Source of the DNA: Thermococcus sp.
Lineage (GTDB): Archaea > Methanobacteriota_B > Thermococci > Thermococcales > Thermococcaceae
Direction of reading: 5' to 3'
Assembly (NCBI RefSeq): GCF_027023865.1
Contig: NZ_JALVUC010000016.1
Coordinates: 1-64,000 of the forward strand
DNA: 64,000 nucleotides
Made by a program: the position numbers and the translations under genes. Under the pieces are notes generated by a model. It did not search any database and was not told the DNA's origin. It worked only from the letters and a program-made list of their open reading frames with translations. This document shows, one piece after another, positions 15,273 to 18,358 of this stretch (position 1 is the first letter of the stretch; each line of letters begins with the position of its first letter).

Positions 15273-15350
15273 GCCCCGGTGGCCTAGTCTGGATAGGGCG
15301 CAAGGCTGCGGACCTTGAGGTCCGGGGTTCAAATCCCCGCCGGGGCGCCA
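15273..15350 (+). tRNA. tRNA-Arg (GCG)
   Basis: Acceptor GCCCCGG/CCGGGGC, discriminator G and encoded CCA. Anticodon stem CAAGG/CCTTG with loop CTGCGGA, anticodon GCG. Its 3' flank starts an AACTTTTGCTTCGCAAAG hairpin and a repeat shared with the 31-kb locus. Confidence 0.95.
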
Positions 15351-15354
15351 TTCT

Positions 15355-15465
15355 AACAACTTTTGCTTCGCAAAGCGCCGCTCTCACTGTCGTTCAAGCG
15401 TCCTTACGGATGGCGGAAAATGAAGTGCCTCTTCCACAAGCTTTGGGTTCTGAAAGGCGTTTTAC
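15355..15465 (+). repeat. tRNA-flanking dispersed repeat, segment A (copy 1)
   Basis: This segment after tRNA-Arg resembles 31147-31235 after the truncated tRNA-Gly: both run CTTTTG/CTTTGT hairpin, GCAAAGCG, then GA(A/G)GTGCCT(C/T)TTC and TTCTGAAAGG.GTTTTA. The part CTCTCACTGTCGTTCAAGCG, followed by TCCTTACGGATGGCGGAAA, recurs inverted at about 40338-40375 with few changes. It has no coding appearance. Confidence 0.6.
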
Positions 15466-15579
15466 TTTTTTCTTCCCGAAAGCCTCGTCCTTTAGGATGG
15501 GGATGCAGTAAACCGCCCAACGGCCCTTAAACGGGAAAGCAAACTATTTTAAAACCTAAGAACAATACCATACTTTGAA

Positions 15580-16785
15580 ATGAAGAGAACAGTAACAATC
15601 AAACTCCAACCCTCAAAAGAACAAGAGAAAACCCTCTTCAAGTTAGCCGATACTGGCGCCAGAGTCTGGAATCGAGTGAACTACCTCCGCAGGCAAGAAT
15701 TCTTCAAAGAACAAATCGTGGACTTTAATTCAACAGAGAAAACCGTTTATGAAGAATTCAAAAAAGAAATCGGTTCCGCAACAGTCCAGCAAATTTGCAG
15801 AAAGAACACCGAAGCTTGGCGTTCATTCTTCTCACTCTTAAGGAGCAAAAGAAACAAAGAACTACCAGAATGGTTCAAACCCAAACCACCAAACTACACC
15901 AAGAAAGAAGGTTTAATCGTCCTCAGAAACGACCAATACAAAATTGAGGGTAACAAGTTAATTCTCAAAGGCCTTGGAAAATTCCAACACTTGGAAGTCC
16001 AGTTTAAAGGCCGAATACACTTGAGGGGCAAGCAAAGACGCTTAGAAATAACTTATGATGAGGTAAAGCGGAAATGGTATGCTCACGTTAGCCTCACCGT
16101 TGAAGAAGAGTTAATCAACGACGAGTGGGTTGAAGTCCCAAGGCAACCCTTGGGCAACTTCTCTGCTGGCATTGACCTCGGAGTGAACAATTTAATGGCG
16201 GTCTACGTGGAAAACGGTGAAAGCTTCCTCGTGAACGGAAGACCCTTGAAAGCCATAGACTTCTACTTCAGGAAGGTTATCGCTGATTATCAGTCAAAAC
16301 TCAACAAGTCTGGAGCGAAAACGAGTAGAAAACTCAGAAGACTGCACGAGAAGGCCAAACTCCAAGCCAAGCACTACATTAACACTACCGTGAGGCAGAC
16401 CCTCGAGAGGCTCTACCGCCTCGGAATTTCGAGAATTGTGGTTGGCTACCCCAAAGGTATTAGTAGGAACTCCGATAAGGGAACGAGGCAGAATTTCCTC
16501 CTCTCTCACGTTTGGCGGTTTAACACGGTGATTCAACGGCTCAAAGAAGTCTCCGAAGAGTATGGTATTAGTGTCGTGGTTGTTGATGAGGCTTTCACGT
16601 CTAAGGTTTGTCCCGTTTGCGGGAAGCCTCATTATGGGGCGAGGTTTGTTCGTGGATTATTTAAGTGTCCCGCGACGGGGCTTGTGTTTAACGCGGACTT
16701 AGTTGGAGCGTTTAACATTTTAAAGAAGGTGGCAAAAACGATAACCCCGAACTTGGGTTGGTCTCTATGCCCAAGTGAGGGGTAA
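15580..16785 (+). CDS. tnpB: RNA-guided endonuclease TnpB
   Basis: A 401-residue TnpB (IS200/IS605 family), the ancestor-type nuclease of Cas12. The RuvC triad is intact: D199 in GIDLGVNN, E337 in VVDEAFTS and D373 in FNADLVGAFNI. The zinc finger has C344-x2-C347 and C363, but the position of the fourth cysteine is threonine (CPATG); H351 in GKPH may be the fourth ligand, a variant I believe occurs in archaeal TnpBs. The N-terminal helical and beta-barrel region (TIKLQPSKEQEKTLFKLADTG) is complete. No frameshift or stop, so it looks active. No strong ribosome binding site; AAACTATTTTAAAACC upstream could be a promoter. Confidence 0.92.
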   Translation: MKRTVTIKLQPSKEQEKTLFKLADTGARVWNRVNYLRRQEFFKEQIVDFNSTEKTVYEEFKKEIGSATVQQICRKNTEAWRSFFSLLRSKRNKELPEWFKPKPPNYTKKEGLIVLRNDQYKIEGNKLILKGLGKFQHLEVQFKGRIHLRGKQRRLEITYDEVKRKWYAHVSLTVEEELINDEWVEVPRQPLGNFSAGIDLGVNNLMAVYVENGESFLVNGRPLKAIDFYFRKVIADYQSKLNKSGAKTSRKLRRLHEKAKLQAKHYINTTVRQTLERLYRLGISRIVVGYPKGISRNSDKGTRQNFLLSHVWRFNTVIQRLKEVSEEYGISVVVVDEAFTSKVCPVCGKPHYGARFVRGLFKCPATGLVFNADLVGAFNILKKVAKTITPNLGWSLCPSEG

Positions 16786-16911
16786 TTGGCCGGAGACCCG
16801 GCCAGAGGGGTTGAAGACCTGTTTTAGTTTGGGTTTTAATGAGACCCCTCAAACTTCCCCGCAGTTGGGTTAGGGGGTCCTCGTTGGAACCCTCGCCCTT
16901 CAGGGGGGAGG
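16740..16911 (+). ncRNA. Candidate omegaRNA (TnpB guide RNA scaffold)
   Basis: TnpB guide RNAs overlap the 3' end of tnpB and end at the right end of the element. Here three hairpins follow one another: ACTTGGG/CCCAAGT (16751-16776, inside tnpB), GGCCGG-AGAC-CCGGCC (16788-16803) and GAGGGG/CCCCTC (about 16805-16850), and then the right-end hairpin 16890-16911. The guide would be read from the flank that begins about 16912 (AAGTCAGTCGCTTTAAGG). Position and structure support the call; no expression evidence. Confidence 0.55.
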
Positions 16912-17035
16912 AAGTCAGTCGCTTTAAGGTTGAACCTCTTGAAACTTGCTCCTTGACGAGGGCATGACTGACCTCTTGCCCTTTAAGGAGAAGGATGCAC
17001 ACTTTGATCAAATTTGTTTTGCAAAGTTTGCTTGC
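16912..17035 (+). repeat. tRNA-flanking dispersed repeat, segment B (copy 1)
   Basis: This stretch matches 31300-31430 by eye with scattered differences: TTGAACCTCTTGAAACTTGC.. against TTAAACCCCCTCAAAACTTGCC.., CATGACTGACCTCTTGCCCTTTAAGGAGA against CACGACTGGCTTTTTGCTCTTTGAGGAGA, and CTTTGATCAAATTTGTTTTG then CAAAGTTTG. No coding appearance. It immediately follows the TnpB element. Confidence 0.6.
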
Positions 17036-17089
17036 CCGCCAGAGTTCCCCCGGCGCTATCCATAAATACTGTTATCCCAAGTAGAATTG

Positions 17090-18358
17090 ATGAGCGCCCC
17101 TGTGTTCAACTCGAAACTCTGTGCCATCTGCAAGGGTAGAAAGCTCCTCTGCGGCAGATCAACTTGTCCTATACTCGAACGCTTTAGGGTAGCTCGTACC
17201 GTGGAGCGAAAACTGAACAAGCGCCACCTCTTTGGCTCCTCCCCGCCAAGTGTCTTTGTTGGAGAGTATGGCTATCCCAAGGTTAGAATAGGGCCCCTTG
17301 TCCCCCCCATTGAAGGGAAAACGGATTACCTCGACAGTCCGCTCAAATGGGAGAACAAAACCATAAAGGACATCCTCTACTACCGCTCGTTACTCGTCAT
17401 GGGCGAGACCATGGCTGATATCCATGTGAGAAAGAGTGGTAGGATTCTAAGCGAGGTCCAAGAGCTGGCGATGAGCGTTAAATCCGTCGATAGCGAGATA
17501 CTCCTCAAAAGGAAGCCCGTCCTAAAGGTTCTCCCAAGCGAGTTCGCCCCTCCGTTGGGGCCAAAGGCTGAACTCCTCGACTTTGAACTGACTGAGAACC
17601 CAAAAATCCCCCGCAGAACCGACTACGTTGTGGGCGACGAGCTTAAAGCAGAGGGGGCGGTAATGCGCCTCTACAACTGGGGTTTCGACGAATACTACAT
17701 TATAAGGCTCCTTTCAGCGGGACTCCTCGGCGTTGACAAGAAGCTCGTTCCAACAAGGTGGAGCATCACCGCAGTTCAGGATACAATAGGCAAGAACGTG
17801 AGGAAGGAGATTCTCCATTATCCCCTCATCAACGACTACGAGGTCTACTTCTACCGCTTCATGGGCAACCGCTACGCCGTTCTTCTGATGCCCGAAACTT
17901 ACGCCTTCGAGCTTTTGGAGATCTGGTTAAAAGGTTCCCTCTTTGGGGCGAGTGAACCGAGCGTAATCCACGACTATGAGGACTTTCGTGGAAGGAGGGA
18001 GTACGTCAAAGAAACGGCTGGGGCTTACCATGCCGCTCGGCTGAGCGTCCTTGAAGTTCTACGCAAGAGGAAGAGGCAGGCTAGGGCGGTGGTCTTCCGT
18101 GAGGTTACCCCTGAGTACTACGCCCCCGTTGGGGTGTGGCAGATAAGGCTCGGTGTCAAGAAAGCTATAGGCAACCCCATAGGTCACTTTGGGACCCTCA
18201 ATGAGGCCCTTGAGGTCATCAGAAGGCGTCTTGAACACCCATTTGGGAAGTATCTTCAGAGGAGTTACATCCTTGGAAGTCTCGCGAAGCAGAAGACCCT
18301 CGACCAGTGGCTCGGAAGAGATATATACCGTCTTGGTGGAGGGAGAGCGGATGGATGA
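17090..18358 (+). CDS. nreA: DNA repair protein NreA
   Basis: A 422-residue protein of the archaeal Nre family, which acts with PCNA in DNA repair. The N terminus holds a zinc finger C11-x2-C14-x6-C21-x4-C26 (KLCAICKGRKLLCGRSTCPI). The C terminus holds a PCNA-interacting motif (QKTLDQWL) about 16 residues from the end. Family blocks such as SPPSVFVGEYGYPKVRIGP and YLDSPLKW are present. ATG 17090 has no ribosome binding site, but a TATA-like CATAAATAC is centred 25 bp upstream, so the mRNA is probably leaderless. Confidence 0.9.
   Translation: MSAPVFNSKLCAICKGRKLLCGRSTCPILERFRVARTVERKLNKRHLFGSSPPSVFVGEYGYPKVRIGPLVPPIEGKTDYLDSPLKWENKTIKDILYYRSLLVMGETMADIHVRKSGRILSEVQELAMSVKSVDSEILLKRKPVLKVLPSEFAPPLGPKAELLDFELTENPKIPRRTDYVVGDELKAEGAVMRLYNWGFDEYYIIRLLSAGLLGVDKKLVPTRWSITAVQDTIGKNVRKEILHYPLINDYEVYFYRFMGNRYAVLLMPETYAFELLEIWLKGSLFGASEPSVIHDYEDFRGRREYVKETAGAYHAARLSVLEVLRKRKRQARAVVFREVTPEYYAPVGVWQIRLGVKKAIGNPIGHFGTLNEALEVIRRRLEHPFGKYLQRSYILGSLAKQKTLDQWLGRDIYRLGGGRADG

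What the first reader, a model, noticed from the sequence alone, without database searches (positions are those of the whole stretch)
15483..16911. Orphan TnpB element with recognisable ends and intact nuclease
CCTCGTCC-TTTA-GGATGGGG at the left and CCCTCGCCC-TTCA-GGGGGGAGG at the right bracket a complete TnpB with D199/E337/D373. Three further hairpins overlap or follow its stop, fitting an omegaRNA. The absence of TnpA implies the element depends on another for transposition or that TnpB has been kept for another use.
Basis: partly seen in the sequence, partly recalled or inferred. Interest (0 to 1): 0.65.

Follow-up and report, generated by a model that had tools for sequence, protein, structure and literature searches.

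The report
TnpB transposon with its guide RNA
This is a complete, ordinary-looking copy of an archaeal jumping gene that carries an RNA-guided DNA cutter and its guide RNA; it is one of about eleven in this Thermococcus-like genome and comes with at least a dozen smaller relatives that kept only the guide-RNA gene.

Summary
Confirmed and refined. Window 15466-16918 (1,453 bp) is a TnpB-only IS200/IS605-family element in a Thermococcus-like genome. About ten other TnpB copies and many contig-end fragments fix the ends: target TTAC (15462-15465) on the left, TCAG (16915-16918) on the right, guide from 16919. TnpB is intact; E337 is the alternative ('Ealt') RuvC glutamate. D199, E337 and D373 are conserved in 43 intact homologues, and dN/dS among copies is about 0.1. 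16741-16918 is an omegaRNA: 94.8% of cells paired, covariation 0.274 against 0.113 for shuffles. It resembles Rfam HgcC (below the curated cut-off) and haloarchaeal sot RNA. 'Orphan' is misleading: the genome has one TnpA, beside another copy, which could act in trans. Five sister insertions have empty alleles in relatives with no duplication; the window's own empty site survives in a relative, but an ~81-bp deletion 4-6 nt past the right end makes its guide chimeric. A model built only from TnpB omegaRNAs also finds at least a dozen TnpB-less ~415-bp elements here with the same ends and RNA fold, probably guide-RNA-only elements. The window copy is a new member of a known kind; the guide-RNA-only elements are the interesting part.

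The parts
15462..15465 (+). target tetranucleotide TTAC (cleavage site CL; predicted TnpB TAM), belongs to the flank
   Evidence: TTAC at the same place in about 31 of 37 left ends of this genome; empty sites in relatives
15466..16918 (+). whole TnpB-only IS200/IS605-family element (1,453 bp)
   Evidence: sequence similarity to other copies stops at these two points
15478..15502 (+). left-end subterminal hairpin (15483-15502) with GAAAG (15478-15482) at its 5' foot, the place of the IS608 guide tetranucleotide GL (AAAG)
   Evidence: comparison with IS608 from general knowledge
15535..15554 (+). archaeal BRE/TATA-like promoter GAAAGCAAA-C-TATTTTAAAA, about 26-45 nt before the tnpB start
   Evidence: sequence, kept in sister copies; inference
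15580..16785 (+). tnpB, 401 aa, RNA-guided endonuclease; RuvC D199, E337 (Ealt, six residues before C344), D373; zinc-ribbon cysteines C344, C347, C363
   Evidence: PF01385 and PF07282, NF040570 guided_TnpB 195 bits, conservation in 43 homologues, AlphaFold and Foldseek
16717..16725 (+). TATA-like ATTTTAAAG inside the FNILKK codons, about 20 nt before the omegaRNA core; possible internal promoter
   Evidence: weakly conserved; T. kodakarensis has internal start sites in the matching transposase genes (PMC4247193)
16741..16918 (+). omegaRNA (reRNA) scaffold: helices AUAACCCC/AGGGGUA, GGCC..GGCC, GAGGGG..CCCCUC and the terminal hairpin
   Evidence: HgcC 36.1 bits and sot0042 23.1 bits
16887..16918 (+). 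right end: GAAC (putative GR, 16887-16890), subterminal hairpin (about 16891-16911), cleavage site TCAG 16915-16918
   Evidence: GAAC/TCAG instead of IS608 GAAT/TCAA keeps the pairing (IS608 from general knowledge)
16919..16938 (+). guide segment TCGCTTTAAGGTTGAACCTC; only its first 4-6 nt match the empty allele in a relative because of an ~81-bp deletion at about 16923-16924
   Evidence: no second copy of TTAC+guide in the genome

Best explanation
A TnpB-only member of the IS200/IS605 family. Shown by comparison: exact ends, insertion 3' of TTAC without duplication in sister copies, an intact TnpB under purifying selection, and a covarying 3' RNA scaffold. Inferred from family knowledge: a Y1 TnpA (here probably the single one on contig C19, acting in trans) peels the single strand between TTAC and TCAG and pastes it 3' of another TTAC. 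TnpB is made from its own promoter. The RNA from the tnpB 3' end and right end, plus 16-20 nt of flank, loads TnpB, which cuts the empty donor site next to TTAC so that repair restores the element. For this copy the guide is chimeric. If the adjacent deletion happened after insertion, its own guide no longer matches the ancestral empty site, and its TnpB would rely on RNAs of other copies.
For: Multi-copy family with shared exact ends. TnpB families, and fold match to ISDra2 TnpB 8h1j. Catalytic residues conserved in 43 intact homologues and dN/dS 0.09-0.13 between genomic copies. RNA covariation. One intact TnpA beside a TnpB copy. Precise empty alleles for five sister insertions and for the window site. 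Transcripts from the corresponding region of T. kodakarensis transposase genes (PMC4247193), which Karvelis et al. cite as an earlier report of tnpB-associated RNAs (PMC8612924).
Against: No RNA or protein data for this organism. The right-end hairpin has lost two bases and the guide is chimeric, so this copy may no longer move or guard its site. The TnpA-bearing copy has lost its left hairpin and its tnpB is frameshifted. TAM function was not tested.
Confidence: 0.88

Rival explanations
1. TnpB at this locus has been kept by the host for another role (RNA-guided regulation or defence), independent of transposition.
For: dN/dS about 0.1. At least 11 genomes of the genus, 8 of them about 94-99% complete, carry intact TnpB with no detectable TnpA. 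The window guide matches the known empty allele for only about 6 nt.
Against: No conserved locus: the copies sit in unrelated places with element ends. RuvC residues are intact, whereas radical exaptation often loses them (general knowledge). Selection can be explained by the life cycle of the element.
Confidence: 0.12
2. A recently dead copy: the reading frame is intact, but the copy is immobile and without a useful guide.
For: Shortened right hairpin, deletion next to the right end, rearranged locus (tRNA-Arg and nre sides are not adjacent in relatives), only one TnpA in the genome.
Against: The ORF is open and conserved, dS to its nearest copy is already 0.58 with dN 0.065, and the RNA fold is fully kept (174 bits).
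Confidence: 0.3
3. The 3' hairpins are only DNA signals for TnpA or a terminator; there is no omegaRNA.
For: The last hairpin is a TnpA-type end; a long-range alternative pairing shows no covariation.
Against: Internal helices, not needed as DNA ends, covary strongly. The same RNA model finds TnpB-less elements. Matching transcripts exist in T. kodakarensis.
Confidence: 0.03

Closest known systems
IS200/IS605 family, IS1341-type (TnpB-only) elements
   Same: TnpB, subterminal hairpins, insertion 3' of TTAC, no duplication, no terminal inverted repeats
   Different: right cleavage site TCAG with GAAC instead of IS608 TCAA/GAAT; no own tnpA
ISDra2 TnpB with reRNA/omegaRNA (PDB 8h1j)
   Same: fold, RuvC aspartates, RNA from the tnpB 3' end and right end with flank as guide
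   Different: 18% identity; canonical Glu place holds G289 and the Glu is at E337 (Ealt); second zinc CxxC degenerate (C363..T366); predicted TAM TTAC instead of TTGAT
Rfam HgcC (RF00062) and sot0042 (RF02656)
   Same: full-length alignment over the right end; HgcC consensus holds GGAGGAGGUCAG; HgcC1-3 of T. kodakarensis lie in transposase genes (PMC4247193)
   Different: 36.1 and 23.1 bits, below the gathering scores of 50 and 88
PATEs of Haloquadratum (PMC3119063)
   Same: TnpB-less elements with IS605-type ends; 52-bp terminal-only forms match the ~51-nt mini-elements seen here
   Different: the ~415-bp Thermococcus elements keep a complete omegaRNA fold plus a further structured 5' domain and a promoter-like sequence

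Membership tests
IS200/IS605-family element | subterminal hairpins with cleavage sites, insertion 3' of a short T-rich motif, no target duplication | tested here: met
IS200/IS605-family element | Y1 HUH transposase TnpA able to mobilise it | tested here: inconclusive
   none in the element; one intact TnpA (HVH motif) in the genome; activity on these ends not testable
RNA-guided TnpB nuclease | OrfB_IS605 and TNB domains, RuvC D-E-D | tested here: met
   the Glu is in the Ealt position described in PMC10711439
RNA-guided TnpB nuclease | RNA-guided cleavage next to the TAM | not testable with these tools
   TTAC predicted as TAM from the target site only
TnpB omegaRNA/reRNA | conserved structured RNA overlapping the tnpB 3' end and ending at the right end, flank as guide | tested here: met
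   structure by covariation only:
Rfam HgcC | score at or above the curated gathering score (50 bits) | tested here: not met
   36.1 bits, E 7e-7, full length; not filed as HgcC, only as alike
PATE (for the TnpB-less relatives, not the window copy) | IS605-type ends, no transposase, no target duplication | tested here: met
   (three ~415-bp elements with precise empty alleles)

The most novel reading that the evidence does not exclude
Thermococcus genomes carry a two-part network: TnpB elements such as this one, and TnpB-less ~415-bp mobile guide-RNA genes that load TnpB in trans, so that one nuclease guards many insertion sites. Several 'HgcC' RNAs would then be omegaRNAs of both kinds, including T. 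kodakarensis HgcC4, which lies outside transposase genes.
Probability: 0.5. Interest if true: 0.65.

Novelty: new member of a known kind. Interest (0 to 1): 0.45.

Why it matters
The window copy itself adds one more TnpB element. The family around it gives exact ends, a predicted TAM (TTAC), a covariation-backed omegaRNA model and natural empty alleles for a hyperthermophilic Ealt TnpB in a genetically tractable genus. It also suggests a function for the old orphan RNA family HgcC outside transposase genes: guide RNAs that travel without their nuclease.

Tried and rejected
Searching TTAC+guide in the genome found no second target. The direct tRNA-Arg/nre empty site is not recoverable because the two sides are not adjacent in relatives; the site was recovered instead from repeats of genome G008. 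A long-range pairing of CCUCCCC with GGGGAGG, proposed by RNAalifold, shows no covariation above shuffles and was dropped. Filing the RNA as HgcC was rejected on the gathering score. HgcC in the family of the distant genome G059 gave one weak hit without TnpB nearby. Internal promoter: the TATA-like codons vary among copies, so only tentative. No paper found in the library calls HgcC a TnpB guide RNA, but Karvelis et al. cite the T. kodakarensis report, so that link is not claimed as new.

Full report
What the window is. The window is contig C16:1-64000 of a 1.92-Mb genome in 26 contigs. Nearly all named relatives of its TnpB found in public genomes are Thermococcus or Thermococcaceae.

Observation. 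The hairpins, the 401-aa ORF and D199/E337/D373 are as reported. The same genome holds 33 BLAST matches to the stretch, about ten of them near-complete TnpB copies at 74-86% identity, many others at contig ends. Lining up their ends shows that similarity starts right after TTAC (15462-15465) and stops at TCAG (16915-16918). The element is therefore 15466-16918. TTAC precedes about 31 of 37 left ends found in this genome, the others being near variants or decayed (my count).

End anatomy. GAAAG sits at the 5' foot of the left hairpin and GAAC at the foot of the right hairpin. In IS608 (general knowledge) AAAG pairs with TTAC and GAAT with TCAA. Here GAAC and TCAG differ from IS608 at matching positions, so the pairing is kept. 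This supports Y1-TnpA-type ends but was not tested biochemically.

Protein. TnpB matches OrfB_IS605, the TNB domain and NCBIfam guided_TnpB. The position of the canonical RuvC glutamate is G289 in 43/43 intact homologues, while E337, six residues before the first zinc cysteine, is invariant. This is the Ealt arrangement described in PMC10711439. The second zinc CxxC is degenerate (C363, residue 366 mostly T or E). The AlphaFold model (mean pLDDT 81) matches Cas12f and ISDra2 TnpB structures (8h1j E 1.3e-15). dN/dS between intact copies of this genome is 0.09-0.13.

RNA. From 49 TnpB copies the region 16741-16918 aligns and folds. For the 30-pair structure 94.8% of cells are paired, 131 cells have changes on both sides (shuffles 46), and the covariation score is 0.274 (shuffles 0.113, slid versions 0.096 or less). 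Rfam gives HgcC at 16785-16931 (36.1 bits, gathering score 50) and sot0042, a haloarchaeal tnpB sense-overlapping RNA, at 16739-16911 (23.1 bits). The HgcC alignment runs past TCAG into an A/U-rich stretch, where a guide would lie.

Expression in a relative. In T. kodakarensis HgcC1-3 start inside transposase genes TK0298, TK0495 and TK0850 in sense direction, and HgcC4 and HgcC5 lie elsewhere (PMC4247193). Genome G011 has a 2,088,737-base chromosome, which I recall as the KOD1 length; the identification is mine. In it the RNA model finds exactly three strong TnpB-linked RNAs and one strong TnpB-less RNA, at places that fit those gene numbers. So HgcC1-3 and HgcC4 most likely correspond to the two kinds described here. 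Karvelis et al. cite that paper for RNAs associated with tnpB elements.

TnpA. One Y1 TnpA exists in the genome, in an element that interrupts a sir2-type gene; its tnpB is frameshifted and its left hairpin is missing. Only 9 of 37 genomes of the genus have a TnpA match. In at least 11 genomes without one, an intact TnpB is present; three of these genomes are incomplete.

Empty sites. Joined flanks of sister copies match uninterrupted sequence in relatives exactly at the junction, without duplication, for the sir2 insertion, for a TnpB copy (L010) and for three TnpB-less elements (L027, L030, L031). For the window copy, a tRNA-associated repeat in genome G008 reads TTTTTAC|TCGCTTGCTCC, the empty site. 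The window has TCGCTT joined to sequence that lies about 81 bp further on in G008; two paralogues in the own genome have the undeleted form. Whether the deletion came before or after insertion is unknown; if after, the window guide matches the ancestral empty allele for only 4-6 nt.

TnpB-less elements. The genome has ~415-bp elements with the same ends, a promoter-like sequence and no sizeable ORF of their own. A covariance model made only from TnpB omegaRNAs finds at least a dozen of them here, aligned over the whole model, at 72-125 bits, and ten more in relatives above 80 bits. Folding them on their own recovers the same three 5' helices. Among 36 relatives, strong hits to this element occur in 14 of 21 genomes with TnpB and 0 of 15 without (Fisher p 6e-5; genomes are not independent and the first-look search is not exhaustive). 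They are PATE-like elements (PMC3119063) that have kept the guide RNA. Trans-loading of TnpB is an inference.

Verdict. The window copy is an ordinary but well-defined TnpB element, with a chimeric guide. The family-level picture raises interest moderately.

Noticed in passing
L024:932-1350, L027:954-1374, L028:965-1379, L030, L031, L095: TnpB-less ~415-bp elements with the same ends, an omegaRNA fold and a further ~150-nt 5' domain with apparently covarying hairpins of unknown role.
   Followed up: partly
G000:C22:26751-26795, C11:19765-19817 (L034) and others; G024 and G008: About 51-nt single-hairpin mini-elements TTAC..TCAG; 21 pattern hits in G024; three identical copies in G008, which shows neither TnpB nor TnpA hits, suggesting they spread as such. 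Similar to 52-bp terminal-only PATEs.
   Followed up: partly
L016:418-2019: The TnpA-carrying element sits in a sir2-type gene; its tnpB has lost the stop and runs in frame into the 3' part of sir2 (533-aa ORF).
   Followed up: no
window 15350-17040; L226, L227, L228: The element lies in a repeated intergenic sequence of several hundred bp found next to tRNA genes in Thermococcus genomes; its nature is unknown.
   Followed up: no
window 17087-18358: Archaeal Nre gene (PF04894/PF04895) directly right of the element; in relatives it is not next to this tRNA-Arg, so the site is a rearrangement point.
   Followed up: no
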